DNA of 64,000 nt, from assembly GCF_001679485.1 (NCBI RefSeq), contig NZ_LZOZ01000017.1:62001-126000 (forward strand). The letters are read 5' to 3'. The stretch's first letter is position 1. Each line of letters opens with the position of its first letter. This DNA is from Haemophilus sp. CCUG 60358 (lineage in GTDB: Bacteria; Pseudomonadota; Gammaproteobacteria; Enterobacterales; Pasteurellaceae). The position numbers and the translations under genes are program-made. This document shows, piece after piece, positions 12,285 to 35,392 of the stretch. The notes under the pieces were generated by a model that had not been told where the DNA came from, ran no database searches, and saw only the letters and a list, made by a program, of their open reading frames with translations.

Positions 12285-13205
12285 ATGTCTCAATCTCAAA
12301 AGCACATTTTAGTTATTTCTTATTCACAAACGGGGCAGTTGAATGAGCTGACTCAGCATTTTCTTCAACCATTGAAGCAACAAGAAAATATTGTTATTGA
12401 CGAATGCCAAATTGAACCGATTCAACCCTACTCTTTTCCTTGGAAATTTATTCCCTTTTTTAATCAATTTCCAGAATCAGTTCATCTCAAACCGGCACCG
12501 ATTGAAACGCCAATATTACAACGCGAAAAATATGATTTAGTCATCATCGCTTACAGCGTGTGGTTTCTATCGCCTTCACAACCTATCTCGGCATTTTTAC
12601 AATCTGAACAGGCTAAAATCTTAAAAAACACGCCTGTCATTACACTGATTGGCTGCCGTAATATGTGGTTGATGGCGCAAGAAAAAATGAAAAAAATGCT
12701 GACCGCACTTGATGCTAACTTAATTGGTAATGTGGTTAAAACGGATCAATCCAATGCTTGGGCAAGCTTTATTACAACTCCTGCATGGATGCTTAGTGGA
12801 GAAAAACGTTATTTTTCATGGCTGCCGAGTGCAGGAATTAGTGATGCAGATATGCAAGATATGCAACGTTTTGGATATCGTTTAGTACAGATTCTGAACG
12901 AAAATCAACCTTTAGATAAATCACTTTTCCAAAACATGGGCGCCGTCAAAATTGATGAAAAATTAATGATGAGCGAAAAAGTCGGTCATCGCAGCTTTTA
13001 TATCTGGGGAAAATTGCTGTTAAAGTGCGGTCAAATTTCGCCTGTTTTTCGTCAAGCCATGCTCTATTTTTATATCGTATTTTTGATTATACTAATTCTC
13101 ACTGTTGTACCACTTTCAGCCGTGGTAAAACGCCTATTAAAACCATTATTAAAAGAAAAACTGGCGCGCCAAAAGCGCTATTTTGCTGAACCTTCAGGGG
13201 AATAA
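12285..13205 (+). CDS. DarA-like dialkylresorcinol-forming flavodoxin-fold protein
   Basis: 306 residues. The N terminus (ILVISYSQTGQLNEL) is a flavodoxin-like phosphate-binding loop, and the central YDLVIIAYSVWFLSPSQP resembles the second flavin-contacting segment. One membrane segment is seen near residues 262-282 (FYIVFLIILILTVVPLSAV), followed by a basic tail. This architecture matches proteins annotated as dialkylresorcinol condensing enzyme (DarA), which aromatise the diketide condensation product formed by DarB. The next gene, three bases on, is a DarB-like KAS III, which strengthens the assignment. The function is inferred from family and context. Confidence 0.7.
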   Translation: MSQSQKHILVISYSQTGQLNELTQHFLQPLKQQENIVIDECQIEPIQPYSFPWKFIPFFNQFPESVHLKPAPIETPILQREKYDLVIIAYSVWFLSPSQPISAFLQSEQAKILKNTPVITLIGCRNMWLMAQEKMKKMLTALDANLIGNVVKTDQSNAWASFITTPAWMLSGEKRYFSWLPSAGISDADMQDMQRFGYRLVQILNENQPLDKSLFQNMGAVKIDEKLMMSEKVGHRSFYIWGKLLLKCGQISPVFRQAMLYFYIVFLIILILTVVPLSAVVKRLLKPLLKEKLARQKRYFAEPSGE

Positions 13206-13207
13206 TT

Positions 13208-14368
13208 TTGACTTCACTACATGATGTTTATATTAATCGAGTTGCTGCATTTTTACCAAATGAACCCGTAACAAATGATCAAATGGAACAAGTGCTCGGT
13301 ATGATTGGTAAGACACCATCCCGCGTACGTAAAATGATCTTACGTTCGAATGCGATAAAAACGCGTCACTATGCAATTAATCCGGAAACCCGAGAAACAA
13401 CACATACCAGCACTGAGCTTGCAGTAGAAGCCATTAATGATTTAATTCGCCAAGGGATGGATGTCAATGAGGTGAGTTGCTTGGCATGCGGTACGTCTTA
13501 CCCCGATCAAATTATGCCGGGCCAAGGTGTCATGGTGCATGGTTTAATCCCCAATGCACCACCTTATGAAGTCCTGACTGCCGCGGGTGTTTGTGTAGCG
13601 GGTATGGCAGCAATGAAACATGCTTACAATGCAGTTCGTACTGGTGAACATCAAAGTTCAATTGCCGTGGCATCTGAAGCGGCATCCGCCATCATGCGTG
13701 GTGAACATTTTCAAGCAGAAATTGAGCAACGACAATTAGATGAAGCTAAACCGGAAATTGGTTTTGAAAAAGATTTTCTACGTTGGATGCTTTCTGACGG
13801 TGCTGGTGCCGTACAATTAAGTAATCAGCCCAATCAGCATGGATTTAGCTTAAAGATCCACTGGATTGACCTTATTTCTTACGCCAATGAAATGCCTGTG
13901 TGTATGTATGCAGGTGCAGAGATTCGTGACGAACAATTTGTGAGTTGGAAAAACGTCACTAAAGAAGAGCGTGAAGCGCGTAGCCTGATGGCTGTTAAGC
14001 AAGATGTCAAATTACTCAATGAAAATATTGTGCGTTGCACGGTTGAAAATGCGCTATTACGCTTAATTGATAAATATGACTTAAAAGCAGACGAGATTGA
14101 TTATTTCTTACCTCATTATTCTTCAGGCTTTTTCCGAGATAAATTATTAGATGGACTGAAAAATATTAATTTTGAGATCCCACAAGAAAAATGGTTCACC
14201 AATCTTGAAAGTAAAGGGAATACAGGCTCTGCATCTATTTACATCATTTTGCAAGAATTTCTAGAGAAATTCCCGCTCCAAAATGGGCAAAAAGTATTGT
14301 GCTATATTCCAGAGAGCGGTCGTTTCTCCTCTTGTTTTATGTTGCTTGAGGTCGTGAATGGACATTAA
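13208..14368 (+). CDS. KAS III-type condensing enzyme, DarB-like
   Basis: 386 residues with the complete Cys-His-Asn triad of FabH-type ketosynthases: Cys129 in AAGVCVAGMAAM, His in FLPHYSSG and Asn in SKGNTGSASIY. DarB enzymes join two fatty or polyene acyl thioesters to a cyclohexanedione, which DarA oxidises to a resorcinol. The start is TTG at 13208 behind AGGGGA with good spacing; no in-frame ATG lies close by. The 3' end overlaps the following gene by 11 bases. It is much longer than housekeeping FabH (316 residues, also in this window), so it is not a duplicate of that gene. Confidence 0.78.
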   Translation: MTSLHDVYINRVAAFLPNEPVTNDQMEQVLGMIGKTPSRVRKMILRSNAIKTRHYAINPETRETTHTSTELAVEAINDLIRQGMDVNEVSCLACGTSYPDQIMPGQGVMVHGLIPNAPPYEVLTAAGVCVAGMAAMKHAYNAVRTGEHQSSIAVASEAASAIMRGEHFQAEIEQRQLDEAKPEIGFEKDFLRWMLSDGAGAVQLSNQPNQHGFSLKIHWIDLISYANEMPVCMYAGAEIRDEQFVSWKNVTKEEREARSLMAVKQDVKLLNENIVRCTVENALLRLIDKYDLKADEIDYFLPHYSSGFFRDKLLDGLKNINFEIPQEKWFTNLESKGNTGSASIYIILQEFLEKFPLQNGQKVLCYIPESGRFSSCFMLLEVVNGH

Positions 14369-14747
14369 TGAAATCCCACAAGACGACAGTAAAATTTTTC
14401 GTGGGCAAAAGAAAGTCATTTATGCCACTCAAAATGGTCATTATAAAACTGGCACAACAACAGGTTGGGATACAGAAGCATTTGTCACCGAACAAGCGGT
14501 TGAAGAATTTAACCAACTGACAAATGAAGCCTTAGATGCGGTAAAACGCGGTGAAAAATCACCGCTCTTTTATTATATGTATCGTTATCGTTTTGACCTG
14601 CCAACACTTGCTCAAACAACAGGGCTTTGGCAGTGGCAAATTAAACGACATTTTAAACCAAGTGTCTTTGAGAAACTGTCGGATAATGTATTGGCTAAAT
14701 ATGCAGAAGCATTTGGCGTGTCAACTTCAACATTAAAAACGATCTAA
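14358..14747 (+). CDS. Unknown protein with an XRE-like C-terminal segment
   Basis: 129 residues, not recognised as a named family. The N-terminal half has short beta-like stretches (QKKVIYATQNGHYKTGTTTG). The C-terminal half (about residues 75-129: LPTLAQTTGLWQWQIKRHF, then LSDNVLAKYAEAFGVS) has the spacing of an XRE-type helix-turn-helix. It overlaps the DarB-like gene by 11 bases, so it belongs to the transcript. A cluster-specific regulator is one reading; a small accessory protein with a structural HTH is another. Confidence 0.6.
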   Translation: MDINEIPQDDSKIFRGQKKVIYATQNGHYKTGTTTGWDTEAFVTEQAVEEFNQLTNEALDAVKRGEKSPLFYYMYRYRFDLPTLAQTTGLWQWQIKRHFKPSVFEKLSDNVLAKYAEAFGVSTSTLKTI

Positions 14748-14776
14748 ATAAAAATCACAGTTATATATTAATTCCT

Positions 14777-15766
14777 ATGAACAATTTCCAGCATCAGCAC
14801 ACGGCTCACTGCGAAAGTGGTGTCATGTCCACTATGTTGAAAGCACAAGGTGTCGATTTTAACGAGGCGATGGTTTTCGGCTTAGCCTCAGCGTTGACCT
14901 TTGTTTATATTCCATTAGTTAAAGTCAATGGAATGCCACTCATATCCTACCGCATGCCCCCAAAATCAATCATTAAAAATGTGGCAAAACGTTTAAAAGT
15001 GCGGTTAAACATACAAAAGTTTCGTTCGCCACAAGCTGGACAAGAAGCACTCGATCTCGCATTGACCGAAAATAAATTAGTTGGTTTACAAACCTCTGTT
15101 TTCTGGTTGCCTTATTTCCCACCAGAAATGCGTTTCCATTTTAATGCCCACAATTTAATTGTGTACGGCAAAGAGCACAATGACTACTTAGTTAGCGATC
15201 CCGTTTTTGAAACGGTACAGCATTGTGCTGCTGAAGATTTACAACGCGCGCGTTTTGTGAAAGGTGTACTGGCGCCAAAAGGGTTGATGTATTACTTTGA
15301 AAGCCAACCAGACTTAGCGAAGATTGATTTACCAAGTATTACCCGTAAAGCTATTCGAAAAAATGCCAAACAAATGTTGGCTCCACTCTTTTTCGTCGGT
15401 GTAAAAGGTATCCGTACTGTAGCCAAAAAAATTGAAAAACTGGCAACGCATCCTTCGGACAAATACAAACGCTTATATCTGGGTCACATCGTGCGTATGC
15501 AAGAAGAAATCGGCACTGGTGGTGCAGGTTTTCGCTATTTATATGCCTATTTTCTCGAACAAGCCTCTGATATCTGCCAAGAACCTAAATACAAACAGAC
15601 TTCCGAACAAATGACTGAAATTGGCGATATGTGGCGTCAATTTGCGGGATTATGTGTGAAACAATGCAAGAAACCAACAAATAAAGGTTATCACACCGTA
15701 GCTGAATATTTGCGTGACATTGCAAATAAAGAACAACAAATTTGGCAAACATTACGTAATTTATGA
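14777..15766 (+). CDS. BtrH-N-domain protein, putative acyl-ACP transferase
   Basis: 329 residues. The N-terminal half resembles the BtrH N-terminal domain, a papain/C39-like fold. Candidate catalytic residues are Cys13 in HTAHCESGVM, His in HFNAHNLIVYG and Asp in DYLVSDPVF. BtrH in butirosin biosynthesis moves an acyl group from an ACP to an acceptor, so this protein could release or transfer a chain from the cluster ACP. The C-terminal part is helical and of unknown role. It overlaps the ABC ATPase gene by 4 bases. Activity and substrate are inference. Confidence 0.65.
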   Translation: MNNFQHQHTAHCESGVMSTMLKAQGVDFNEAMVFGLASALTFVYIPLVKVNGMPLISYRMPPKSIIKNVAKRLKVRLNIQKFRSPQAGQEALDLALTENKLVGLQTSVFWLPYFPPEMRFHFNAHNLIVYGKEHNDYLVSDPVFETVQHCAAEDLQRARFVKGVLAPKGLMYYFESQPDLAKIDLPSITRKAIRKNAKQMLAPLFFVGVKGIRTVAKKIEKLATHPSDKYKRLYLGHIVRMQEEIGTGGAGFRYLYAYFLEQASDICQEPKYKQTSEQMTEIGDMWRQFAGLCVKQCKKPTNKGYHTVAEYLRDIANKEQQIWQTLRNL

Positions 15767-16485
15767 TTCAAATAAATAATCTTAGCCATCTCTACCCTAA
15801 CGCTGAAAAAAATGCATTAAGTGCGGTCAATTTTGATATTGAATCAGCTTCCACGATTGGACTTTTAGGTCCGAATGGTGCAGGTAAAACGACATTAATG
15901 TCTCTACTTGCTGGGTTGCAATCTGTGCAACAAGGAGAAATTTATTTTGACGGTGTACCTTTTGCAAAACTAAGCAAAAAACAGCGCCATCAGATTTCCT
16001 TGGTGCCACAGGATTTTGCATTTTATCCCTTGCTCACGGTTTTGGAAAATCTGAGATTTTTTGCGTCATTGTATGATGTTCGAGATAAAGGTTATTTACT
16101 AGAACTACTCGCTAAGGTAGATTTAACCTCTGATAAAAATAAGCTTGCGAAACATTTATCCGGCGGGTTAAAGCGCCGTTTAAATTTTGCTATTGGCTTA
16201 ATTAATCGCCCAAAAGTGATTTTTCTAGATGAGATCACAGTGGGTATTGACCCACAATCCCGCCAATTTATTTTAGATAGCGTAGCGGCGCTGAAAGAGC
16301 AAGGTGTGACGGTAATTTATACCTCTCATTATTTACAAGAAATAGAGCAATTATGTGATAAGTTAGTGCTGTTAAATGAAGGCAATCTCATTTATCAAGG
16401 CACCGTGCAAGGCATTTTAGAAGAAGGACAAAGTTTGGAACGTTTTTATTTAGATTTTTTAAATCAGGCGGGAAAAACATGTTAA
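15763..16485 (+). CDS. ABC transporter ATP-binding protein
   Basis: 240-residue nucleotide-binding domain with Walker A GPNGAGKTT, Q-loop VPQDF, signature LSGGLKRRL, Walker B VIFLDEIT and switch His in YTSHYLQE. The signature (SGGLKRR) is of the drug/pigment-export type rather than the import type. It overlaps its upstream neighbour by 4 bases and the permease gene by 7, so ATPase and permease form a two-gene exporter. The location between resorcinol-type genes suggests it moves a cluster intermediate or product. Confidence 0.9.
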   Translation: MIQINNLSHLYPNAEKNALSAVNFDIESASTIGLLGPNGAGKTTLMSLLAGLQSVQQGEIYFDGVPFAKLSKKQRHQISLVPQDFAFYPLLTVLENLRFFASLYDVRDKGYLLELLAKVDLTSDKNKLAKHLSGGLKRRLNFAIGLINRPKVIFLDEITVGIDPQSRQFILDSVAALKEQGVTVIYTSHYLQEIEQLCDKLVLLNEGNLIYQGTVQGILEEGQSLERFYLDFLNQAGKTC

Positions 16486-17720
16486 TTGCATCGATTTTTA
16501 AAGAAATGCGCCTATTAAGCCGTGATCTGCATGGTGTTGCTGTGTTATTCATTATGCCAATTCTGTTTATGTTGATTATGTCGGCGGCATTGAGTAATGA
16601 TAATACATTAAGCAATCGGTCAGAGATTGTACTATTAAGTGAAAAAAATCAGCTAAATGATGATTTTCTCACTCAACTCAAGAAAGAAAATCTTGCGGTT
16701 AAACAAGCTCCATTATCAGAATTAACTCAATATCAAGCTGATTTACAAACAGGTAAATTTGACCTATTGGTTTTAAATCCTAATCAAAAACAGACCGCAC
16801 TTTCGGAAGAACAGGCTTTACAACTTTGGTTGAATCCTAGTGTAGATCGCAGTTGGTTACTGGGTGTGAAAGGCGTATTGCAAAAACATTATTCACAACT
16901 ACGTTTAAACGATTATTTAGCTGATAATCACATCACATTAGAAAATAATAAACGCAAACCAATTAAAGAAATTCAGAATAAAGTCAATAAAGAGCTGGAT
17001 AGCAAATTTGCTCAAATTAATGATTATCTTTCTAAAGATTTGTGGCAAGAAATTTATGTCAATCGTCATGGAAAGGAAGTGAGCAAACCAAGCTCCGTGC
17101 AACATAGTGTACCGGCTTGGCTGATTTTTGGCATGTTCTTTATTATGATTCCTCTATCTAATGTGATGGCAATGGAGCGTCAAACCAATACGCTAACCCG
17201 TTTACGCATGGCGCGAGCCTCTGCATTGAGCTTGATTATTGCCAAATTAATTCCTTATTTTTTGATTAACCAGTTACAATTCGTCGGCATGGTCGCGCTT
17301 GGTTATTTTGTCCTCCCTGCACTTGATATGCCCGCATTTACACTCTCTGGAAGTTGGTTACCCTACATCGTATTATCCAGTGCAGTAAGTCTTGCGGCAC
17401 TAGGGTATGGTTTGTTAATTAGTGTAGTAGCGAGAACCACTGAACATGCGGTCGTATTAGGCGGAGGTGGTATTATTATCATGGCAGCCATTGGCGGTAT
17501 TATGGTGCCTGTTTATGTGATGCCAGAAATCATGCAAACTATTTCGCAATTTTCGCCTATGGGCTGGGCATTAAGTGGTTTCCAAAATTTATTATTAAAT
17601 CACTATCACCTTAACCAAATACAACAACCACTCTATTTATTAAGTGGATTTGGGGCAATCACATTACTTTTAGCTACTTTCATTTATCAACGACAATTAA
17701 CTAAACAAGCGAGATTCTAA
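16479..17720 (+). CDS. ABC-2 type exporter permease
   Basis: 413 residues. One N-terminal membrane helix (about residues 20-38, VLFIMPILFMLIMSAAL) is followed by a soluble extracytoplasmic region of about 170 residues and five further helices (from VPAWLIFGMFFIMIPL to the GFGAITLLLATFIY C terminus). This is the ABC-2 layout seen in exporters of drugs, polysaccharides and lipids. It overlaps the ATPase gene by 7 bases and ends on the first base of the ACP start codon. The substrate is unknown. Confidence 0.85.
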   Translation: MLIASIFKEMRLLSRDLHGVAVLFIMPILFMLIMSAALSNDNTLSNRSEIVLLSEKNQLNDDFLTQLKKENLAVKQAPLSELTQYQADLQTGKFDLLVLNPNQKQTALSEEQALQLWLNPSVDRSWLLGVKGVLQKHYSQLRLNDYLADNHITLENNKRKPIKEIQNKVNKELDSKFAQINDYLSKDLWQEIYVNRHGKEVSKPSSVQHSVPAWLIFGMFFIMIPLSNVMAMERQTNTLTRLRMARASALSLIIAKLIPYFLINQLQFVGMVALGYFVLPALDMPAFTLSGSWLPYIVLSSAVSLAALGYGLLISVVARTTEHAVVLGGGGIIIMAAIGGIMVPVYVMPEIMQTISQFSPMGWALSGFQNLLLNHYHLNQIQQPLYLLSGFGAITLLLATFIYQRQLTKQARF

Positions 17721-18010
17721 TGGCTTATACTTTTACACTGGAAGCGCCAGCACTTGAGCTGGAACTCAAAAAACTCATCGTTCAAGAAACGGAAAAAGAT
17801 GAATTTGATCCTGCCGAAATTCGTGATGATGAATGGCTATTTGGCGAACAAAGCCGTATTCAATTAGATTCATTAGATGCGTTACAAGTTGTTGTAGCAC
17901 TACAGGCTCATTTTGGTGTGCGTTTACAAGGTGATCGCATGGTGCGCAAACACATGATGAACATACGTGATCTCGCGGCTTTTATCCGTGAACAACATAG
18001 TAAAATCTAA
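17720..18010 (+). CDS. Acyl carrier protein of the DAR half
   Basis: 96 residues with the phosphopantetheine attachment motif LDSLDAL (Ser51). It is longer at the N terminus than housekeeping AcpP (76 residues) and more basic near its C terminus. Its ATG and stop each overlap neighbouring genes by one base (TAATG), giving tight coupling with the permease and ketosynthase genes. It probably carries the chain made by the following ketosynthase. Confidence 0.85.
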   Translation: MAYTFTLEAPALELELKKLIVQETEKDEFDPAEIRDDEWLFGEQSRIQLDSLDALQVVVALQAHFGVRLQGDRMVRKHMMNIRDLAAFIREQHSKI

Positions 18011-18996
18011 TGAACGTTTATCTCAATGCTGTTTCTGCTCGATTTGCTGAAAAGCTTGGTCAACGAGCTTCCAATATGCTAGGCCAACCGCTTAGCTTTC
18101 CTTATTTCAACGCATTTAAGGAACCGCTGCTGTCATTAGAGCAGCTCTATCACTATATTGATATTGAAATCGACCGCACTTTACAACGTGCGGGTTGGGA
18201 TAAATCTGATCTAAAAAACATCCCCATTCTACTTGGTTCTACCGCTTATATGATCAGTGACTGTGAAATTCGCATTGCTCATCACCAAGCATTACCGAAA
18301 GAATATAACCTTACTGCCATCGCTGAGAATTTAGGAAATCGCTATCAGACAGAAGTATCTAGTTTTGCCACGTCTTGTACATCTTCGGCACAAGCCATTG
18401 GTTATGCATACAAAATGCTGAAAACTGGTATGTATAAAAAGGCCCTAGTAGTTGGTTTTGAGATGTTTAATCGTCTTACTTTTGAACATTTCCAATCCAT
18501 GAACCTATTATCACAAGCCAATGAATATCACCCTTTCATCAATCCTACGGGCATTGTATTAGGCGAAGGCGTTGGGTGTGTCGCATTATCAACAGAAAAA
18601 AACGTGTCATTCCCATGTGAAATATTGGGGATAACAACAATCACAGATAATGAAAATCTGACCAACAGTAGCGAAACGGCATTACGTCAATTACTCACCA
18701 ACTGTTTAGCAAAAACAAATCTAAAAACAGAAAACATTCAAGGCATTAAAGTGCATGGTGTAGGGGGGAATAGCGATGAGATGGAACAATCAGTTTTACA
18801 GGAACTCTTCCCGAATACCGAAACCATTTTAGTAAAACCCTATATGGGGCATACGCTTGGTGCCAGTGGTGCATTAGAAACCGCATTTTTAATCGAACAC
18901 TTACAAAAAACTGATGTTAAGTGCGGTCACTTTTTAAATTATTTTTTAGGTTTTGGCGGTAGCAATATTGCATGGATTTTAAAGGTGAGTGAATGA
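18010..18996 (+). CDS. Short beta-ketoacyl-ACP synthase (KAS I/II-like)
   Basis: 328 residues, shorter than the usual 400-410 because the N-terminal region is reduced. The catalytic triad is still complete: Cys123 in FATSCTSSAQ, His249 in VHGVGGNS (HGTGT in most homologues) and His281 in MGHTLGASGA. It should therefore be able to condense. It is followed with a 4-base overlap by a chain-length-factor-like protein, so the two may form a heterodimer as in type II polyketide systems. An exact uptake signal is present at 18919-18927. Confidence 0.82.
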   Translation: MNVYLNAVSARFAEKLGQRASNMLGQPLSFPYFNAFKEPLLSLEQLYHYIDIEIDRTLQRAGWDKSDLKNIPILLGSTAYMISDCEIRIAHHQALPKEYNLTAIAENLGNRYQTEVSSFATSCTSSAQAIGYAYKMLKTGMYKKALVVGFEMFNRLTFEHFQSMNLLSQANEYHPFINPTGIVLGEGVGCVALSTEKNVSFPCEILGITTITDNENLTNSSETALRQLLTNCLAKTNLKTENIQGIKVHGVGGNSDEMEQSVLQELFPNTETILVKPYMGHTLGASGALETAFLIEHLQKTDVKCGHFLNYFLGFGGSNIAWILKVSE

Positions 18997-19589
18997 CATT
19001 TTATATAAAACAAACTAATCAGTTCATCGCCAATGGCGTGGATGATAAAACGTTACGCCAGCAACTCAAAGAACAAGGTCTCGATGCTCGTCGTTTAAGT
19101 CGTTTTACTCAACTTGCTTTGCTTGGTGCGATACCATTAAACCCCTATATTGATGAAAATACAGGAATTTATTTAGGATCGCTTTTTAATTCACCAAGCA
19201 AGTTTGATAAAATGTTTCATCAACTGATGGAGCAAAATTTGCCTAGCCCTTTAGATTTTATGGCAAATATCAATAACGCAGCGACGTTTCAACTGACTCA
19301 AACCTTACAAACCTCAGCCAACTCCGTATTTTTAGCGATTAACCATCAAACCATTTGGCAGCCACTAAAACTCGCCTTATTGGATCTTGAAAACGATGAA
19401 ATATCATCTGCATTAATCGGTTGGACGCTAGAAAAAAGTGAGCATTCTGAACAAACTGAAGGGGCCGTGTTTTGGCTTATTTCTAAAAATGGGGAAAATT
19501 CGGAAAGAAAACTTGATCTCTTCTCTCTTGAGCATTCAATGTCTGAAAGCTTAGATTTTCTTTCTCAAATCAAAAAAATAACACCTTAA
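18993..19589 (+). CDS. Ketosynthase-like chain-length-factor candidate
   Basis: 198 residues. The segment GIYLGSLFNSPSKFDKMF followed by LPSPLDFMANINNAATF has the layout of the N-terminal half of a ketosynthase (the Ketoacyl-synt_2 type), with no active-site Cys. Half-size ketosynthase-like proteins act as chain-length factors in aryl polyene systems. The start ATG overlaps the ketosynthase stop (ATGA). It is the last gene before a strong terminator. The family assignment is by pattern only; a pairing partner role with the preceding ketosynthase is inference. Confidence 0.6.
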   Translation: MTFYIKQTNQFIANGVDDKTLRQQLKEQGLDARRLSRFTQLALLGAIPLNPYIDENTGIYLGSLFNSPSKFDKMFHQLMEQNLPSPLDFMANINNAATFQLTQTLQTSANSVFLAINHQTIWQPLKLALLDLENDEISSALIGWTLEKSEHSEQTEGAVFWLISKNGENSERKLDLFSLEHSMSESLDFLSQIKKITP

Positions 19590-19614
19590 TTGATATCAAC
19601 TAAGGTGTTATTTA
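19576..19614. terminator. Strong bidirectional terminator at the end of the DAR half
   Basis: A perfect 13-bp stem (AAATAACACCTTA at 19576-19588 with TAAGGTGTTATTT at 19601-19613) encloses a 12-base loop that itself contains the palindrome TTGATATCAA. The stop codon of the upstream gene is part of the stem. It serves the convergent lipoprotein gene as well. Confidence 0.8.
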
Positions 19615-19622
19615 ATAAACAA

Positions 19623-20048: not shown

Positions 20049-20203
20049 TTTGACTCCTTTTGATTTGAATGAAATAAATATTTCCCTTTATAACATAGAG
20101 ATGAGTAATATATCAAATTTTAACCTATCTACGACTATTTTATTGTGAATAGAAGTAGTGTAGAATCTTAAAAATTTTTATTTATAACTTAAGGTACCAA
20201 CCC

Positions 20204-20623: not shown

Positions 20624-20639
20624 TTTTTAACAATATAAC

Positions 20640-22398: not shown

Positions 22399-22401
22399 TT
22401 C

Positions 22402-26167: not shown

Positions 26168-26173
26168 ATTGCT

Positions 26174-28277: not shown

Positions 28278-28279
28278 TA

Positions 28280-28864
28280 ATGCGATTGATGATCTTCATC
28301 TTAGGTTTGTTCCTAAGCAGCGTGAGCTTCGCTTTTTCTGAAGCTGATTTGGTGAAACAACTCCAGCAACCTCAAAGCGTTCAAGGAAACTTTATCCAAC
28401 ATCGCTATTTAAAGGCATTAAATAAGCCAATTGAACTGCAAGGTCAATTCTCCTTGTTAGCTCAAAAAGGGCTATTATGGCAGCTTGAGAAACCGTTTAA
28501 TAACAACTTAAGAGTGACGCCTAAGGGGATTCAACAATGGAATGGGACCCAATGGGTTAATAGCGGTAATGTTGGGCAAAACGAGCAAATTGGTCTTTTT
28601 TTAGGTTTATTATCCGGCAATATTGATGGACTTAAATCTCAATTTGATTTTGCATTATCCGGCAATGCTAACCAATGGCAACTGACCTTAACGCCTAATT
28701 CATTATTAATGCAGCAAATCTTCACAACCATTGAAATTTCAGGCGATCAAACTGTGAAAAAATTAACCTTAAATGAAAAACAAGGCGATCGCACACAAAT
28801 TGAATTTAAGCAAATCCAGCTTAATCAGCCATTAAGTCAGTTTGCCCGTTCAGCGCTGGAATAA
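28280..28864 (+). CDS. LolA-like periplasmic lipid carrier
   Basis: 194 residues with a Sec signal peptide (MRLMIFILGLFLSSVSFA), then a LolA-type half-barrel (VQGNFIQHRYLKALNKPI, GLLWQLEKPF, TPKGIQQWNG). LolA relatives bind lipidated cargo, so this protein probably carries the hydrophobic product between membranes. It sits directly before the MMPL exporter gene, as in known aryl polyene clusters. Confidence 0.88.
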   Translation: MRLMIFILGLFLSSVSFAFSEADLVKQLQQPQSVQGNFIQHRYLKALNKPIELQGQFSLLAQKGLLWQLEKPFNNNLRVTPKGIQQWNGTQWVNSGNVGQNEQIGLFLGLLSGNIDGLKSQFDFALSGNANQWQLTLTPNSLLMQQIFTTIEISGDQTVKKLTLNEKQGDRTQIEFKQIQLNQPLSQFARSALE

Positions 28865-28877
28865 ACTATTGTAAAAG

Positions 28878-31154
28878 ATGAAAAAAACAACCGAACTTTC
28901 CTTGTTATATGCTGTATTTATCTTGTTTGTTTCCCTATTGTTTGGCTATTTTGTCAAACAAGGAAATTGGCTACAAACAGATTTACACACATTACTTCCA
29001 TCTCAACAAGAATGGGCGGATATTCAAGTTCTCGCTGACCAACAGCAAGAAAAACAGCTAAACAGCCAAATTATTGCGCTTATCGGACATCCTGACGAAA
29101 AACAGGCTTTTCAGCTGACAGACCATATTGCGCAAACGTGGCGTAGTAGCAAACTTTTCTCTCATATTACCGATCGCATTCAGCCTAACCTTACTCAGCT
29201 ACAACAAGATATTCAGCTTGTCGCATTTGCCACTTTGCCACAAGCCGTTCGTGAACAGTTGATTAATGATCCTAAAGGCTATTTTCAGCAATATGCAGAG
29301 GACATCGTTAACCCATTTAAGCGAAATAATTTACTCTCACTAGAACAAGATTGGCTCGGTTTTGGACGTTTTGCCCAGCAAACACAACAAGGTAATGTAC
29401 AATGGCACGCCGAAAATGGCATGCTCACTGTCAACCAAGGTAATATGACTTGGGTTTTATTACGTGCTGAACTGCAACAAAATGATTTCATCAATCCATC
29501 AGAAAATTTAACCGCACTTCTAACGGAAAATCGCCAATATCTCACTCAATCTGGTGCACAATTTAAAATTACAGGTAGTGCATTGTTTGCCGCTGATGCA
29601 AAACAAAAAGCCGAAAAAGAAAGCACATTAATGAGCGTACTCGGCGTGAGTTTAACGTTATTATTATTACTGATTGTCTTTCGTACTCCTCGTATTTTAT
29701 GGCTATTTTTGCCGATTCTAATTGGAATGCTTTCAGGTGTCGTTGCAACCGTGTGGGGATTTGGTCAAATTCATATTCTTACCCTTGTTATTGGGACCAG
29801 TCTCGTCGGTGTATTAATTGACTTCCCTCTTCACTGGCTTGCAGGATCTCTTTTTGACCGAAAATGGTTGCCACTTCTTGCGATGCAAAAATTGCGTTTT
29901 ACCTTTTTCATCAGCTTGTTAGTTACCTTACTTGGGTATGGACTACTTGCCTTTACCCATCTGCCTATCTTGCAGCAAACTGCTCTTTTTTCCGCCGTAT
30001 CCTTGAGTACTGCATTACTTGCGACACAGCTATTCTTACCTTATTTATTTTATCGGTATCAGCCAACCATATTATTACCCGAGAGAAGAACATTTAATAC
30101 CATACAAAAAGGATTAAATATCTTTGCAAACAAACGCTTTAATAAAGGTACACTTCTTATTATCTCTCTTTTAGTTTTAGGAGGCGGTATTAAATCCTCA
30201 TGGCATGACGATATCCGACAATGGGTCTCCATGCCTCAATCCATGCTAAATGAAGCCCAAACTATCGGTGAACTCACTGGTGTTGATTTAGGAAGCCAAT
30301 ATTTTTTATTGACGGCTGAAAATGAGACATTACTACTTGAAAAAGATGCGAAGTTAAGCAAGCAATTAGCTCAACGTAACATCACATTTAAATCATTAAG
30401 CCAGTGGATTTTGCCCCTCACAGAACAGATGCAATTCGCAGAACACCTTCAACACATCTCTGCTGATGATTATGCTGTTTTAAATGATATTGGTGTGCCA
30501 ACTGAAAAAATTCAGCAAAATTTGACCGCACTTTCTCAACGTAAGCCATTGACCTTATCTGAAGCGCTTAATACGCAACTTGGACAAGCGTGGAAGATAC
30601 TTTATTTAGGTGAATTAGCCCCTAACCAAGTGGCGAGTATCATAAAAATATCTCAAGCGGATAGTGCAACAATGCAAGTATTGGCAAATAATCAAGATAT
30701 TTTCTGGCAAGATAAACGAGCTTATTTAAATCAAGCCTTTAAAGAAGCAAAAGAGCAAGCTGCTTGGCTAAAAATCATTTCTTTTGCTATCGCTGGATTG
30801 CTTTTATGGAAAGTATTTGAAACCAAAACAAGTATTCGAATCTTGTTCATTCCTTGTATAGCAATCTTAGGAACGGTTGCTATTTTGGGTTGGATTGGTT
30901 TGCCTATTGGTTTATTTTCGATGTTTGGATTATTACTGGTTTCAGCCATTGGTATTGACTACGCCGTTTATATGAAAACCGTACATGAAGAGCTATCTCA
31001 TAAACGCATTACACTGACATTAGCTGCCTGTACCACATTAATCTCATTTTTACTGCTCGCCATTAGCTCCACACCAGCAGTGGCGACATTTGGTATAAGT
31101 GTCAGTATTGGTGTTATAATAAGCCTTTTAACCACATTAAAACTCATGCGCTAA
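28878..31154 (+). CDS. MMPL/RND-family exporter
   Basis: 758 residues with the duplicated RND layout: helix 1 near residues 9-28, a large periplasmic domain, helices 2-6 (from SVLGVSLTLLLLLIVF), a second periplasmic domain and helices 8-12 (from IISFAIAGLLLWKV). SAIGIDYAVYMK in the second half and TSLVGVLIDFPLHW in the first are the charged proton-relay helices. Such exporters move lipids and polyenes across the inner membrane. It is the likely route for the aryl polyene-lipid product. Confidence 0.9.
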   Translation: MKKTTELSLLYAVFILFVSLLFGYFVKQGNWLQTDLHTLLPSQQEWADIQVLADQQQEKQLNSQIIALIGHPDEKQAFQLTDHIAQTWRSSKLFSHITDRIQPNLTQLQQDIQLVAFATLPQAVREQLINDPKGYFQQYAEDIVNPFKRNNLLSLEQDWLGFGRFAQQTQQGNVQWHAENGMLTVNQGNMTWVLLRAELQQNDFINPSENLTALLTENRQYLTQSGAQFKITGSALFAADAKQKAEKESTLMSVLGVSLTLLLLLIVFRTPRILWLFLPILIGMLSGVVATVWGFGQIHILTLVIGTSLVGVLIDFPLHWLAGSLFDRKWLPLLAMQKLRFTFFISLLVTLLGYGLLAFTHLPILQQTALFSAVSLSTALLATQLFLPYLFYRYQPTILLPERRTFNTIQKGLNIFANKRFNKGTLLIISLLVLGGGIKSSWHDDIRQWVSMPQSMLNEAQTIGELTGVDLGSQYFLLTAENETLLLEKDAKLSKQLAQRNITFKSLSQWILPLTEQMQFAEHLQHISADDYAVLNDIGVPTEKIQQNLTALSQRKPLTLSEALNTQLGQAWKILYLGELAPNQVASIIKISQADSATMQVLANNQDIFWQDKRAYLNQAFKEAKEQAAWLKIISFAIAGLLLWKVFETKTSIRILFIPCIAILGTVAILGWIGLPIGLFSMFGLLLVSAIGIDYAVYMKTVHEELSHKRITLTLAACTTLISFLLLAISSTPAVATFGISVSIGVIISLLTTLKLMR

Positions 31155-31180
31155 AAAACGCATAAAAATGACCGCACTTT

Positions 31181-31681
31181 ATGATAAAAAAATATCTTTT
31201 ATTATGGACATTAACATTACTGACAGCTTGCTCAACTTTACCTAATATTGAGGCATTACCGGAAGTAAAAACAGACAGCCGAACCTTTAAAGTAGAGCAA
31301 CTTGCAGAACAGCAAGTTAAACAAACAAGCTTGCTGACTGTTCAGTTCCAGCCTGAGCAATGGCGATGGGTTCAAACCGATCCTCTAGGTTCACCCATTG
31401 CTCGATTATTATTAACGAAACAAGGCTGGAAAAATGACGGCTTTGTGATGCCGAATAAACAAGCACAAGGCTTGTTCTTAGCGCTGGCAACTGCATTTAC
31501 AGAACAACAACCCGATGCAAAACACTTAACATTAATGAATGTGGATGTATCGCATCAACAAAATACGGTGATTTACCAACAGAATGGTCGTTTTTTATGG
31601 AACGTTCGCAAACAATCAAATCAATATTTTATTCAGCTAGCAGATGGCAGTCGTTGGCAAATTGAAGAACTTAACAATTAG
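31181..31681 (+). CDS. DUF3261 outer-membrane lipoprotein
   Basis: 166 residues with lipobox LLTACS (Cys17) and a beta-rich mature domain (VQFQPEQWRWVQTDPLG, GSRWQIEELNN). DUF3261 lipoproteins occur with the MMPL exporter and LolA-like protein in aryl polyene clusters and probably complete the path to the outer membrane. The start codon is directly preceded by an exact uptake signal (31171-31179), and no Shine-Dalgarno is visible; coupling to the upstream gene may drive initiation. Confidence 0.85.
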   Translation: MIKKYLLLWTLTLLTACSTLPNIEALPEVKTDSRTFKVEQLAEQQVKQTSLLTVQFQPEQWRWVQTDPLGSPIARLLLTKQGWKNDGFVMPNKQAQGLFLALATAFTEQQPDAKHLTLMNVDVSHQQNTVIYQQNGRFLWNVRKQSNQYFIQLADGSRWQIEELNN

Positions 31682-31689
31682 GAATCTCT

Positions 31690-32910
31690 GTGCAATTATT
31701 TCTTTCTCAACCAGGCATTTTGAGTAGCATTGGCGATAGTCTATCTCAACATGTTCAAACTTTATTGGAAGGTAGTGACTCGCCACTGACTTTTTCTAAC
31801 AAACATTTCCAAGAAAATGGCTTGCAGGGTAAATGTAATACTCTGGGTGAAGTCAACACATCCTTGCGGGCATTTCCAGCTGATTTACCAAAAAAACATC
31901 ACAGCCGAAACAATCAATTACTCTGGCACAGCTTAGAACAAATTGAACCAACCATTCAGAAAGCTATCTCACGTTTTGGTCGCCATCGTATTGCAGTAGT
32001 TATCGGTACATCTACCACAGGTGTAGATGAAAATTTACCTGTATTTAAATATGCTGCAGAACATGAGGATTGGTCTGGTGCTGAATTTAATCAACAACAA
32101 CAATATTTTTCTGCTCCGGCTGATTTTATTGCCCATCAATATGGCTTAACCAATCTTATCTATGGCATTTCAACTGCCTGTACATCAGGTGCGAAAGCAT
32201 TAATTAGTGCAGCTCGTCTATTGAATGCGAACTTGTGCGATGCAGTAATTTGCGGCGGTGTCGATACTTTATCGCTATTAACCTTAGTTGGCTTTAACTC
32301 TCTCTCTGTTTTATCTGCTGAACAAACCAATCCTTTTTCAGCTAATCGCCAAGGTATCAATCTAGGTGAGGGTTCCGCTGTATTTGTGATGAGCAAAGAA
32401 AAATTAGATGATCATAATGTGGCGCTATTAGGCTATGGGGCCAGCAGTGATGCCTATCATATGTCATCACCACACCCTGAAGGCGAGGGTGCGATTAAAG
32501 CCTTCCAAGCTGCATTAAACTCGGCACAACTAGCTCCAGAAGCCATTAATTGGGTTAATTTACATGGCACCGGCACCATCCATAATGATCAGATGGAAGC
32601 CTTAGCAATTCACCATATTTTTGGTCACGATACGCCTTGCACAACAACAAAACCTTATACAGGACACACGCTAGGCGCAGCGGGTGCTATTGAGGCGGCT
32701 ATTTTATGGGGGATGATTGACCGCACTTTTAATCCAACAGGTAAACTTCCTGCACAATTATGGGATAAACAAGCCGATGAAAAAATGCCACCAATTGCCA
32801 TTACTGATCACATGAGTTCTTGGAAATCCGAAAGACGCATTGGTGCAAGTAGCTCTTTCGCTTTTGGTGGTAATAATTCAGTACTTATTTTAGGGGAAGT
32901 GAATGATTGA
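31690..32910 (+). CDS. Beta-ketoacyl synthase of the aryl polyene half (ApeO-like)
   Basis: 406 residues with the complete triad: Cys164 in STACTSGAKA, His292 in LHGTGTIHND and His326 in TGHTLGAAGA. The start is GTG at 31690 with AGGA six bases upstream. It overlaps the dehydratase gene by 8 bases. In known clusters the full ketosynthase of this position pairs with the chain-length-factor-like protein encoded at the start of the cluster (here 20640). Confidence 0.9.
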   Translation: MQLFLSQPGILSSIGDSLSQHVQTLLEGSDSPLTFSNKHFQENGLQGKCNTLGEVNTSLRAFPADLPKKHHSRNNQLLWHSLEQIEPTIQKAISRFGRHRIAVVIGTSTTGVDENLPVFKYAAEHEDWSGAEFNQQQQYFSAPADFIAHQYGLTNLIYGISTACTSGAKALISAARLLNANLCDAVICGGVDTLSLLTLVGFNSLSVLSAEQTNPFSANRQGINLGEGSAVFVMSKEKLDDHNVALLGYGASSDAYHMSSPHPEGEGAIKAFQAALNSAQLAPEAINWVNLHGTGTIHNDQMEALAIHHIFGHDTPCTTTKPYTGHTLGAAGAIEAAILWGMIDRTFNPTGKLPAQLWDKQADEKMPPIAITDHMSSWKSERRIGASSSFAFGGNNSVLILGEVND

Positions 32911-33355
32911 TTTAACCTGTCCTATTACTGATATTTCACCATTAATCCCTCATAGTGGGGAAATGGTCATGCTAGATAAAATCACTGAATTTGGCGAAGA
33001 TTATTTGATCGCAGAGATGACCGTAAAGCCAGACTGTCTGTTCTTAAAAGACGGTAAATTGGCTACTTATATGGGCGCTGAAATCTTAGCTCAAGGCGTA
33101 GCAGCGTGGGCGGGATGTAAATGTGTAAAAGCAGGTCAACCTATTGGATTAGGCTATTGGATCGGCTCAAGAAAACTGACATTACATCGTCAAGATATTT
33201 CCGTAGGAAGCTTATTACAAATTCAAATTAAACGTTCTATTGAAGACGCAACGGGATTTGGTGTTTTTGACTGTACGTTAATCGATCTTTCTAATCAGCA
33301 ACCTTTAGTGGAAGGTGCATTAAACGTTTTCAGACCACAAGTATCACAGGAATAA
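32903..33355 (+). CDS. ApeP-type hotdog dehydratase
   Basis: 150 residues. LIPHSGEMVMLDKITEFG carries the catalytic His and YMGAEILAQGVAAWAG the catalytic Glu/Asp helix of FabA/FabZ-like dehydratases. It probably removes water from the beta-hydroxyacyl-ACP to build the conjugated double bonds. It overlaps the ketosynthase stop by 8 bases and precedes the ketoreductase gene by 3. Confidence 0.88.
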   Translation: MIDLTCPITDISPLIPHSGEMVMLDKITEFGEDYLIAEMTVKPDCLFLKDGKLATYMGAEILAQGVAAWAGCKCVKAGQPIGLGYWIGSRKLTLHRQDISVGSLLQIQIKRSIEDATGFGVFDCTLIDLSNQQPLVEGALNVFRPQVSQE

Positions 33356-33358
33356 AAA

Positions 33359-34087
33359 ATGAATGAAAGCATTTTAGTTACAGGCTCAAGCCGAGGTATC
33401 GGCAAAGCCATCGCCTTACGCCTTGCACAATCAGGTTTTGATATTGTGGTTCATTGCCGCAGTCGTATTGAAGAAGCTGAAGAGGTCGCACAATCAATTC
33501 GAGAATTAGGTCGTCAAGCTCGTGTATTACAGTTTGATGTTAGTCATCGATACGAAACCGCAGAAAAACTACTTGCTGATGTTGAATCTCACGGTGCTTA
33601 TTATGGCGTTGTGCTCAATGCCGGATTAACACGAGATAATGCATTCCCTGCGCTGACTGATGAAGATTGGGATGTTGTTTTACGCACGAATTTAGATGGA
33701 TTTTATAATGTTCTCCATCCTATTATGATGCCAATGATCCGACGCCGTAAAGCGGGTCGAATCGTTTGTATCACATCTGTATCTGGACTAATTGGCAACC
33801 GAGGCCAAGTTAACTATAGCGCCTCTAAGGCCGGTATTATTGGTGCAGCAAAAGCACTTGCCGTCGAACTCGCTAAACGTAAAATCACGGTAAACTGTGT
33901 GGCTCCAGGTCTCATCGATACGGATATATTAGATGAAAATCTTCCGATTGATGAAATTTTAAAAATGATTCCAGTTGCAAGAATGGGAGGCCCTGAAGAA
34001 GTCGCGCATGCCGTAGATTTTCTGATGGATGAAAAAGCCGCTTATATTACTCGCCAAGTTATTGCTGTTAATGGTGGGCTTTGCTAA
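33359..34087 (+). CDS. 3-ketoacyl-ACP reductase of the aryl polyene half (FabG-like)
   Basis: 242-residue short-chain dehydrogenase with the cofactor loop TGSSRGIGKAIA, catalytic Ser in ITSVSGLIGN and YSASK (YxxxK). It reduces beta-ketoacyl-ACP in each extension cycle. It is clearly distinct from the housekeeping fabG in this window, so it is a dedicated paralogue. It is the third enzyme of the KS-DH-KR group. Confidence 0.9.
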   Translation: MNESILVTGSSRGIGKAIALRLAQSGFDIVVHCRSRIEEAEEVAQSIRELGRQARVLQFDVSHRYETAEKLLADVESHGAYYGVVLNAGLTRDNAFPALTDEDWDVVLRTNLDGFYNVLHPIMMPMIRRRKAGRIVCITSVSGLIGNRGQVNYSASKAGIIGAAKALAVELAKRKITVNCVAPGLIDTDILDENLPIDEILKMIPVARMGGPEEVAHAVDFLMDEKAAYITRQVIAVNGGLC

Positions 34088-34096
34088 AACATTTGC

Positions 34097-34117
34097 AGTA
34101 CAAAAATTTTTTGTACT
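34097..34117. repeat. Palindrome before the last ketosynthase gene
   Basis: AGTACAAAAA (34097-34106) pairs with TTTTTGTACT (34108-34117) across a single base. It lies in the 60-base gap, the longest gap among the late aryl polyene genes. It could be an operator or a processing site; nothing else supports either. Confidence 0.4.
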
Positions 34118-34147
34118 AATCTAATAATAAATAATCGAGACAAAAAA

Positions 34148-35392
34148 ATGAAACGAGTTGTCATTACAGGTATTGGCGCAGTCACGGCCTTTGGAAAAAC
34201 ATGGAAAGACGTAAAAGCCGCCTTTCAACGCAAACAAAATGCAGTTCAAGCGAAAACTGAATGGGCTGAACGTTATCCTGAGTTAGGAGCAAATCTCGGC
34301 GCTGAAATCCATAATTACACCCCGCCAGCCCATTGGAATCGAAAACAACTTCGCAGCTTAGGTCGTGTCTCTCAATTTGCCGTTGAAGCTGCTGAACTCG
34401 CCTTAGCAAATGCTAATCTATTAGATGAAAATGGGGTTATTTTGCCTTATTTAAAAGAAGGAATAATGGGCGTAGCCTGTGGTTCTTCCACTGGCTCAAC
34501 AAATGATGTCAGAGATGCGGCAGAACTCCTCATGACAGGAAAATCGGATGGTTTTAATGCCAATACCTATGTGCGTATGATGCCTCATACCACGGCAGCA
34601 AATATTGGTATTTTCTTTGGTCTAACTGGCCGAATCATTCCTACGTCTAGTGCTTGTTCTTCCGGCAGCCAAGGTATTGGCTATGCTTATGAATCAATTA
34701 AACATGGTTTAATCCCGATGATGCTTGCTGGAGGAGCAGAAGAATTTTGTCCATCTGAAGTTTATGTATTTGACTCTCTTTATGCTGCAAGTAGAAATAA
34801 TGCTCACCCTAAACAAACTCCTCGTCCTTATGATAAAGATCGTGATGGATTAGTAATTGGTGAAGGTGCTGGTATTTTTGTATTAGAAGAGCTGGAACAT
34901 GCGCTTTCTCGTGGTGCCAATATCATTGCAGAAATTGTTGGCTATGGTGCCAATAGTGATGGTGCTCATGTAACTCGTCCACAAAAAGATACTATGCAGC
35001 GCTGTATGGAGCTAGCCTTAAAAGATGCACAGCTATCTCCAGAGCAAGTGGGCTATGTAAATGGCCATGGCACGGCCACCGAACAAGGCGACATCGCAGA
35101 AACACTCGCAACGGAAGCTGTGTTTGGAAAAGTACCACTTAGCTCACAAAAAAGCTATCTAGGACATACCCTAGGTGCTTGTGGCGCATTAGAATCGTGG
35201 TTTTCAATTGAAATGATGCGTGATGGCTGGTTTGCCCCAACCATTAATTTAGATAATATTGACGAACGCTGTGGCAAATTAGACTATATTCAAGGTGATG
35301 GACGACAAATTCAAACAAACTACGTGATGAATAATAACTTTGCTTTTGGAGGAGTCAATACCTCGCTCATTTTTAAACGCTGGGAAGCGTAA
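34148..35392 (+). CDS. Beta-ketoacyl synthase of the aryl polyene half (ApeR-like)
   Basis: 414-residue KAS II-type enzyme with Cys170 in SSACSSGSQ, His307 in NGHGTATEQ and His340 in LGHTLGACGA. It is the last gene of the locus and is separated from the reductase by 60 bases. In characterised systems the final ketosynthase is a separate homodimer (ApeR). A bidirectional terminator follows directly. Confidence 0.9.
   Translation: MKRVVITGIGAVTAFGKTWKDVKAAFQRKQNAVQAKTEWAERYPELGANLGAEIHNYTPPAHWNRKQLRSLGRVSQFAVEAAELALANANLLDENGVILPYLKEGIMGVACGSSTGSTNDVRDAAELLMTGKSDGFNANTYVRMMPHTTAANIGIFFGLTGRIIPTSSACSSGSQGIGYAYESIKHGLIPMMLAGGAEEFCPSEVYVFDSLYAASRNNAHPKQTPRPYDKDRDGLVIGEGAGIFVLEELEHALSRGANIIAEIVGYGANSDGAHVTRPQKDTMQRCMELALKDAQLSPEQVGYVNGHGTATEQGDIAETLATEAVFGKVPLSSQKSYLGHTLGACGALESWFSIEMMRDGWFAPTINLDNIDERCGKLDYIQGDGRQIQTNYVMNNNFAFGGVNTSLIFKRWEA

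What the first reader, a model, noticed from the sequence alone, without database searches (positions are those of the whole stretch)
12285..35392. Hybrid dialkylresorcinol + aryl polyene locus in a Haemophilus genome
Seen: DarA-like and DarB-like genes followed by a full aryl polyene gene set on one strand, with one housekeeping-type context on each side. Known: flexirubins (Bacteroidetes) and arcuflavin (Azoarcus) are esters of an aryl polyene acid and a dialkylresorcinol. Inferred: this locus makes a similar hybrid pigment, so a human-associated Haemophilus may carry a membrane-anchored antioxidant of this class. No ammonia-lyase or methyltransferase gene is seen, so the head group may be simpler than in flexirubins.
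Basis: partly seen in the sequence, partly recalled or inferred. Interest (0 to 1): 0.88.

Follow-up and report, generated by a model that had tools for sequence, protein, structure and literature searches.

The report
Haemophilus resorcinol–polyene pigment gene cluster
A Haemophilus parainfluenzae-type bacterium carries, in one 23 kb block missing from most of its close relatives, intact genes predicted to build a yellow membrane pigment by joining an aryl polyene to a dialkylresorcinol, and its relatives suggest that a duplicated activating enzyme in the block is kept only where the resorcinol half is also present.

Summary
Window 12285-35392 carries a nine-gene dialkylresorcinol (DAR) operon, in the order printed for the Azoarcus arcuflavin dar operon, followed by an E. 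coli-type aryl polyene (APE) set (ApeC-R). DarB passes the StlD/DarB model (582.6 bits, cut-off 450) and keeps Cys, His and Asn; DarE passes the DarH acyltransferase model; DarA models as a flavodoxin fold. A DAR-APE ester is the likeliest product; no chemistry was tested.

The block is an island: 9 of 9 closely related DarB-free genus genomes have a short gap instead. It is not unique: 35 of 140 family genomes have a real DarB, and Neisseria have similar loci.

Two points go further. The APE set holds two acyl-AMP ligases; the one fused to ApeI is intact in 20 of 20 DarB-positive clusters viewed and damaged or absent in 5 of 6 DarB-free ones (the sixth has a single ligase of another branch). 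No starter-acid enzyme was found: no UbiC in 11 of 11 genus genomes, no aromatic ammonia-lyase in 35 of 35 DarB-positive genomes.

Flexirubin-specific models are not met. Filed as a new variant of a known kind.

The parts
12119..35390 (.). Extent of the island: the stretch absent from relatives
   Evidence: blastn against 9 genus genomes without DarB: alignments end at 12118 (12116 in G006) and resume at 35391
12285..13205 (+). darA, dialkylresorcinol condensing enzyme / aromatase; flavodoxin fold with long C-terminal helices
   Evidence: homologues so named; model pLDDT 84.9; Foldseek to FMN flavoproteins
13208..14368 (+). darB, StlD/DarB family ketosynthase
   Evidence: NF005293 582.6 bits; StlD 5gk0 404.6 bits; Cys129 and His303 in 46/46, Asn338 in 45/46 rows
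14358..14747 (+). NCBI DarG family protein; darD of Azoarcus by position
   Evidence: NF053536 184.2 bits, cut-off 70
14777..15766 (+). NCBI DarH, BtrH-related acyltransferase (darE of Azoarcus by position and annotation); candidate ester-forming enzyme
   Evidence: NF053550 512.6 bits, cut-off 300; BtrH_N and DUF4872
15763..16485 (+). darF, ABC transporter ATPase
   Evidence: PF00005
16479..17720 (+). darI, ABC-2 permease
   Evidence: PF12698, PF01061
17720..18010 (+). darC, acyl carrier protein
   Evidence: PF00550
18010..18996 (+). darJ, short ketosynthase with Cys-His-His residues present (residue roles recalled)
   Evidence: PF00109/PF02801; sequence
18993..19589 (+). darK, ketosynthase-like protein, probable chain-length-factor partner of darJ
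   Evidence: weak Ketoacyl-synt_2 hit E 0.0026, below cut-off; position as azo0283 darK
19623..20048 (-). 141-aa putative lipoprotein, conserved companion of APE clusters at changing positions
   Evidence: found beside APE genes in many Pasteurellaceae loci
20204..20623 (+). 139-aa putative lipoprotein
   Evidence: weak Sbal_3080 hit, 21.2 of 80 bits; relatives before apeC
20640..21377 (+). apeC, chain-length factor
   Evidence: PF13723 169.4 bits
21356..22135 (+). apeD, acyltransferase
   Evidence: PF01553
22135..22398 (+). apeE, acyl carrier protein
   Evidence: NF006617 77.4 bits, cut-off 70
22402..22653 (+). apeF, acyl carrier protein
   Evidence: NF003757 115.3 bits, cut-off 65
22653..24335 (+). 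lig1: acyl-AMP ligase fused to an ApeI-type dehydratase
   Evidence: PF00501 and PF22818; motifs intact
24310..24867 (+). apeG-like protein
   Evidence: 35% identity to the E. coli gene in that place; no Pfam hit above cut-off
24860..26167 (+). lig2: second acyl-AMP ligase, ApeH counterpart
   Evidence: PF00501; 45% identical to lig1
26174..26902 (+). glycosyltransferase half of apeJ
   Evidence: PF00535; 46% to E. coli
26899..27837 (+). LpxL-like acyltransferase half of apeJ
   Evidence: PF03279
27834..28277 (+). apeK, thioesterase
   Evidence: PF13279
28280..28864 (+). apeL, LolA-like
   Evidence: PF03548
28878..31154 (+). apeM, MMPL/RND exporter
   Evidence: PF03176
31181..31681 (+). apeN, lipoprotein in the DUF3261 position
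   Evidence: position as in E. coli; no Pfam hit
31690..32910 (+). apeO, elongating ketosynthase
   Evidence: NF006618 441.3 bits, cut-off 407; best PDB match 6qsp
32903..33355 (+). apeP, dehydratase
   Evidence: PF22817
33359..34087 (+). apeQ, FabG2-type ketoreductase
   Evidence: TIGR01831 379.4 bits, cut-off 338.85
34148..35392 (+). apeR, ketosynthase
   Evidence: NF006587 683.5 bits, cut-off 470

Best explanation
The locus makes and exports a yellow DAR-APE ester of the arcuflavin/flexirubin class. Inferred steps: a ligase (lig2, ApeH-like) loads an aryl acid, most likely 4-hydroxybenzoate, on ApeE; ApeR starts and ApeO/ApeC extend it, with ApeQ, ApeP and ApeI giving conjugated double bonds; DarB condenses two fatty-acid-type intermediates to a cyclohexanedione and DarA, a flavodoxin-fold enzyme, oxidises it to the resorcinol; DarE transfers the polyene acyl group to a resorcinol hydroxyl; the LolA/MMPL/lipoprotein set and the ABC pair move the product outward. 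The extra ligase lig1 serves the DAR branch in some way, for example by activating polyene acid for the transfer. The locus looks like an old presence/absence polymorphism of the H. parainfluenzae group. Only gene content, order, motifs and distribution are shown; every catalytic step is inferred.
For: Gene content and model scores; dar gene order and annotation as in the arcuflavin producer, whose pigment carries a DAR by MS (PMC3949708, parts 1-3 of 5 read); APE order as E. coli, whose genes are tied to the pigment (PMC8253772, passages); DarB residues and clade; flavodoxin fold of DarA; linkage of dar and ape genes in many Pasteurellaceae in differing orientations; lig1 intact in 20 of 20 DarB-positive clusters viewed, damaged or absent in 5 of 6 DarB-free ones. 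Phenotype hint: H. parainfluenzae colonies 'grayish-white or sometimes yellowish', and H. felis, which has a DarA (P0105), 'characteristic yellow pigmentation' (PMC13076348, passages). Age: island identity to G009 is 88.9-96.2% per kb, near that of the flanks.
Against: No chemistry or expression data. Linkage does not prove that the halves are joined. Starter-acid source not found. The lig1 role is a correlation over few, partly related genomes; Neisseria DAR-APE loci (in the stretch viewed) and the Azoarcus table show one ligase, so lig1 is not generally needed. The sixth DarB-free cluster (G029) has one intact fused ligase, outside the lig1 group. Three genomes (G008, G065, Mannheimia L034) keep darA-darB without darE onward at that place, yet G008 and G065 keep lig1, so lig1 goes with darB rather than clearly with darE.
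Confidence: 0.8

Rival explanations
1. Two separate products: a plain aryl polyene and a free dialkylresorcinol (signal or radical scavenger), merely neighbours.
For: Three genomes keep darA-darB without the downstream dar genes at that place, and in G008 the dar genes lie far from the ape genes.
Against: The DarE acyltransferase, ABC pair, ACP and KS stand with darAB in most of the full-length loci; in Azoarcus free DAR was not detected and the DAR is part of the pigment (PMC3949708); lig1 of the APE half is damaged or absent in 5 of 6 DarB-free clusters, which links the two branches.
Confidence: 0.13
2. A silent or partly dead cluster: intact genes, but no product because the aryl starter is missing in an organism without ubiquinone synthesis.
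For: No UbiC in 11 of 11 genus genomes, no ammonia-lyase, no Rv2949c-like lyase in 14 of 14 searched; a paper reports ubiquinone pathways absent in the H. parainfluenzae group (PMC13076348, passages).
Against: All 28 genes are open and 90-100% identical in protein to those of G009 by local alignment, which suggests selection; 13 of 35 DarB-positive genomes lack UbiC yet keep DarB; yellowish strains are described.
Confidence: 0.07

Closest known systems
Arcuflavin locus of Azoarcus sp. BH72 (PMC3949708)
   Same: dar genes in the order A, B, D, E, F, I, C, J, K by annotation; an aryl polyene set in the same genome; product shown by MS to be a DAR-polyene hybrid
   Different: There the polyene genes are xanthomonadin-type, in two unlinked loci, with a XanB2-type chorismatase, a halogenase, a methyltransferase and, inside the dar operon, a PHD/PIN pair; here one contiguous block, E. 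coli-type APE genes, no such enzymes hit, and two ligases
APE_Ec cluster of E. coli (apeA-R; L126, PMC8253772 passages)
   Same: counterparts of ApeC to ApeR in nearly the same order
   Different: no dar genes; has an ApeB methyltransferase; one ligase with a separate ApeI; ApeJ is one gene, here two
Flexirubin loci of Bacteroidota
   Same: relatives of the DarG, DarH, LolA2 and FlxB models beside aryl polyene genes
   Different: flexirubin-specific model cut-offs are not reached; no tyrosine ammonia-lyase
DAR-APE loci of Aggregatibacter, Avibacterium, Rodentibacter and Neisseria
   Same: same dar operon beside ape genes
   Different: orientation and order of the two halves differ; the two Neisseria loci with the ligase in view (L019, L021) show one fused ligase

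Membership tests
DAR-APE hybrid biosynthesis (arcuflavin type) | StlD/DarB-family ketosynthase with catalytic residues | tested here: met
   NF005293 582.6 of 450 bits; Cys/His/Asn conserved; residue roles recalled from FabH
DAR-APE hybrid biosynthesis (arcuflavin type) | dar operon gene order A-B-D-E-F-I-C-J-K | tested here: met
   against Table 1 of PMC3949708, by order and annotation; Azoarcus sequences not compared; PHD/PIN pair absent here
DAR-APE hybrid biosynthesis (arcuflavin type) | complete aryl polyene core (ACPs, ligase, KS/CLF, KR, DH, starter KS) | tested here: met
DAR-APE hybrid biosynthesis (arcuflavin type) | dedicated enzyme for the aryl starter acid | tested here: not met
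   None hit in the locus; in relatives no UbiC in 11 of 11 genus genomes, no PF00221 in 35 of 35; chorismatase search PF21168 inconclusive since no control rang. The E. coli APE locus also lacks one, so this is not a necessary feature of APE loci
DAR-APE hybrid biosynthesis (arcuflavin type) | ester product | not testable with these tools
   needs LC-MS
Flexirubin biosynthesis (Bacteroidota) | NCBIfam flexirubin equivalogs DarG, FlxB, LolA2 above cut-off | tested here: not met
   139.2/170, 272.6/340, 79.2/125 bits
Flexirubin biosynthesis (Bacteroidota) | tyrosine ammonia-lyase starter gene | tested here: not met
   not hit in the locus; absent from 35 of 35 DarB-positive relatives
NCBIfam exception model resorcinol_DarB (NF053539) | score at or above 550 bits | tested here: not met
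   459.7 bits
E. coli-type APE cluster (APE_Ec) | ApeC to ApeR genes in order | tested here: met
   ApeH/ApeI differ by duplication and fusion, ApeJ is split
E. coli-type APE cluster (APE_Ec) | ApeB head-group methyltransferase | tested here: not met
   no methyltransferase hit in the locus

The most novel reading that the evidence does not exclude
In Pasteurellaceae the ApeH ligase was duplicated and the copy (lig1) became a dedicated acyl-ACP synthetase of the hybrid branch, re-activating the finished polyene acid for DarE to esterify to the resorcinol; and H. parainfluenzae, lacking any route to 4-hydroxybenzoate, makes this pigment only from aryl acid scavenged from its neighbours, so pigment formation is a cross-fed trait.
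Probability: 0.22. Interest if true: 0.65.

Novelty: new variant of a known kind. Interest (0 to 1): 0.45.

Why it matters
It extends a pigment class known chemically from Azoarcus and Bacteroidota to a relative of common human oral and airway bacteria, in a single compact and strain-variable locus that could explain why H. parainfluenzae colonies are only sometimes yellowish. The natural presence/absence pairs make its role testable. The lig1 pattern gives a specific, cheap test of how the polyene and resorcinol halves are joined, a step that is not resolved in the parts of papers read here.

Tried and rejected
Searched the plasmid collection for the first five dar genes (12285-16485): two Bacteroides records, each over 4% of the query, so no plasmid link. 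Considered recent mobile acquisition: not favoured, since no integrase or transposase model reached its cut-off among the genes scanned from aroK to dcu, island identity to G009 is near that of the flanks, and the uptake signal recalled as AAGTGCGGT occurs 13 times in the island (0.56/kb) against 35 times outside (0.86/kb); spread by transformation remains possible. Considered stilbene synthesis through StlD: DarB is similar to StlD, but the dar operon and the APE set argue for DAR. Looked for clade-specific pocket residues between lig1 and lig2: a few conserved differences, no substrate could be read from them. Rfam found only a tRNA. Promoter-like sites in 11900-20300 were at shuffle level (27 against 27.4, sd 5.1); terminator-like sites were 10 against 6.7, sd 2.5, one of them a 17-pair stem between darK and the minus-strand gene. 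Literature on pigment in Conservatibacter: one irrelevant paper. Counting limits: G084 (draft, lig1 and DarB split between frames) and G076 (lig1 not in view; its contig was sought among 15 others and not found) were left out of the 20; loci cut by contig ends and Mannheimia G093 (no ApeM match) were not counted; G028, a 25% ApeM match, was not counted among the DarB-free clusters. Two weak DarB hits of 25% identity (G032, G166) were dropped from 37 to give 35. From the DarB tree one short row (L046) and two duplicates (L041, L042) were dropped.
Full report
OBSERVATION. The locus is present at the stated place. Twenty-eight genes lie at 12285-35392; all are open reading frames and all but one are on +. 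Family scans give DarB, a DarG-family protein, a DarH/BtrH-type acyltransferase, an ABC pair, an ACP and a ketosynthase, followed by an aryl polyene set. DarA has no Pfam or NCBIfam hit at E 1e-3. 1607 homologues were found and 120 listed; many of the named ones are called dialkylresorcinol condensing enzyme, one of them from an H. parainfluenzae MAG, others hypothetical protein.

SOURCE. The window's own assembly is not held; the nearest genome, G001, shares 21% of sampled 31-letter words. The nearest named DarA is H. parainfluenzae, and the left flank is 93.9-95.8% identical to nine genus genomes. An H. parainfluenzae-group genome is the best reading.

DAR HALF. The order darA-B-D-E-F-I-C-J-K equals azo0293-azo0283 of the arcuflavin producer apart from a PHD/PIN pair (PMC3949708; parts 1-3 of 5 read). 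This rests on order and annotation; Azoarcus sequences were not compared. DarB scores 582.6 bits (cut-off 450), is close to StlD of known structure (404.6 bits), and keeps Cys129 and His303 in 46 of 46 and Asn338 in 45 of 46 aligned rows, four distant ketosynthases included. In the tree it sits with G009 (99), then G008 (87), within a set of ten rows with Aggregatibacter (98; quick method). The DarA model (pLDDT 84.9) is a flavodoxin-like domain followed by long helices; Foldseek finds FMN flavoproteins (3klb, 4j8p, WrbA), and also receptor structures, which I take to be hits to flavodoxin fusions (recalled; only some titles say so). That suits the oxidation of a cyclohexanedione to a resorcinol, which is inference. 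DarJ has the Cys-His-His residues; DarK is a weak CLF-like hit below cut-off. A 17-pair terminator-like stem lies between darK and the minus-strand gene, so the two halves may be separate transcripts.

APE HALF. Gene order matches the E. coli cluster from the CLF to the last ketosynthase, with differences: no methyltransferase, ApeJ in two genes, and two ligases, the first fused to an ApeI-type dehydratase. In E. coli ApeH is predicted to activate 4-hydroxybenzoate made by UbiC (PMC8253772, passages).

THE SECOND LIGASE. lig1 and lig2 are 45% identical. In the tree lig1 is one group of 17 rows (100/100); lig2-type rows join it at an unresolved fork, with E. coli, G029 and two Neisseria rows outside (the E. 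coli and G029 branches are long, so the root is unsure). This fits a duplication within Pasteurellaceae. In A. vicugnae (L143) and an uncultured Actinobacillus (L148, judged by tblastn only) the ApeI domain sits on lig2 instead, so the domain has moved between the copies. Across DarB-positive Pasteurellaceae, both ligases carry the A3 and A5 motifs (labels recalled) in 20 of 20 clusters viewed: window, G009, G008, G031, G034, G065, G063, G071, G094, G075, G072, G069, G062, G067, G070, G016, G068, G066, G064, G079. Six DarB-free clusters were found among 37 genomes (G028, a 25% match, not counted). lig1 is damaged or absent in 5 of 6: G012 and G020 lack the A5 stretch (G020 has a changed A3 as well), G030 and G032 lack the ligase core, and G022 has ApeI alone. 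The sixth, G029, has one intact fused ligase that lies outside the lig1 group. G012 still holds darD-, darE- and darF-like frames, which points to recent loss of DAR. Against this reading: the genomes are related and some are near-duplicates; Neisseria DAR-APE loci (L019, L021) show one ligase in the stretch viewed; the Azoarcus table lists one; and G008 and G065 keep lig1 although darE onward is missing beside their darABD.

STARTER ACID. No starter enzyme was hit in the locus. UbiC (PF04345) is absent from 11 of 11 genus genomes and present in 78 of 140 family genomes. Of 35 DarB-positive genomes, 22 have UbiC (two of these, G113 and G116, in pieces) and 13 lack it. Aromatic ammonia-lyase is absent in 35 of 35, and Rv2949c-like lyase in 14 of 14 searched. 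The XanB2-type search in six genomes was inconclusive. A 2026 paper states that ubiquinone pathways are absent in the H. parainfluenzae group (PMC13076348, passages). So the source is unknown: scavenging, slow chemical formation from chorismate, or an unrecognised enzyme. The window's own genome could not be searched.

ISLAND. In 9 of 9 genus genomes without DarB the flanks join with a gap of 60 bp in 8 and 120 bp in G006. G009 has the island at the same site. G008 matches only the right flank in the stretch fetched and keeps darA-B-D and the ape genes in separate places. Identity to G009 per kb is 88.9-96.2% inside the island and 92.0-94.8% in the left flank, which fits an old shared island. 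Against G001, which lacks the island, a tract of 99.3-100% begins at the island's right edge and runs about 5 kb, then 97-99% for 3 kb, while the left flank is 93.5-98.4%: a recent exchange beside the island.

DISTRIBUTION AND PRINT. DarB is real in 35 of 140 family genomes and 2 of 11 genus genomes; linked dar and ape genes occur in Aggregatibacter, Avibacterium, Rodentibacter, Actinobacillus, Conservatibacter and Neisseria. In the paper library, 'Haemophilus' + 'aryl polyene' + 'dialkylresorcinol' gave 0 papers, and 'Haemophilus parainfluenzae' + 'arylpolyene' + 'biosynthetic gene cluster' gave 0; wider searches (partly capped lists) gave surveys and other taxa. Passages of PMC8549736 report 36 APE clusters in A. 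actinomycetemcomitans and mention no DAR hybrid there; passages of PMC6469967, PMC11278768 and PMC12453396 report APE and resorcinol clusters in oral or lung bacteria in general. PMC3949708 says that dar genes lie in or next to the polyene cluster in nine of 39 listed genomes; its supplementary table could not be read, so Pasteurellaceae may already be in it. The library is partial, so absence from print is not shown.

PHENOTYPE. H. parainfluenzae colonies are described as grayish-white or sometimes yellowish, and H. felis as yellow (PMC13076348, passages); H. felis carries a DarA (P0105). In Frischella perrara an APE cluster, with no DAR mentioned in the passages seen, gives yellow colonies (PMC10104596), so yellow alone would not show the hybrid.

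VERDICT. The locus is real, intact and most likely makes a DAR-APE ester. It is a variant of a known class, notable for the duplicated ligase tied to DAR and for the missing starter enzyme.

Noticed in passing
window 35441-37108 (-): Dcu-type C4-dicarboxylate transporter with an extra stretch of roughly 100 residues between its two halves, matched over full length at 88-100% identity in 11 of 11 genus genomes and lacking in the paralogue matches.
   Followed up: partly
window 55279-59685 (-): Large autotransporter resembling IgA1 protease (recalled, no family scan) with a long run of EEARKA-type repeats; local GC and AT skew stand out.
   Followed up: no
window 35391 to about 40000: Tract of 99-100% identity to G001, which lacks the island, starting at the island's right edge: a recent exchange.
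   Followed up: yes
L035 / G094: Record titled Pseudomonas stutzeri NCTC11607, but 1.9 Mb and with a DarB beside that of Rodentibacter heidelbergensis in the tree: probably a mislabelled Pasteurellaceae.
   Followed up: partly
L034, L004, L080: Mannheimia haemolytica DSM 10531, A. kilianii PN_491 and G008 keep darA-darB (the last two also darD) without the downstream dar genes at that place; the Mannheimia genome also has no ApeM match.
   Followed up: partly
window 19623-20048 (-): The 141-aa putative lipoprotein travels with APE clusters but sits at different positions and strands, e.g. just before apeK in several genomes, with or without DAR.
   Followed up: partly
L083 about 13080-13160 (G001 empty site): The left border and the short gap that replaces the island hold an uptake-signal pair in inverted orientation; the window keeps only the left copy.
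   Followed up: no
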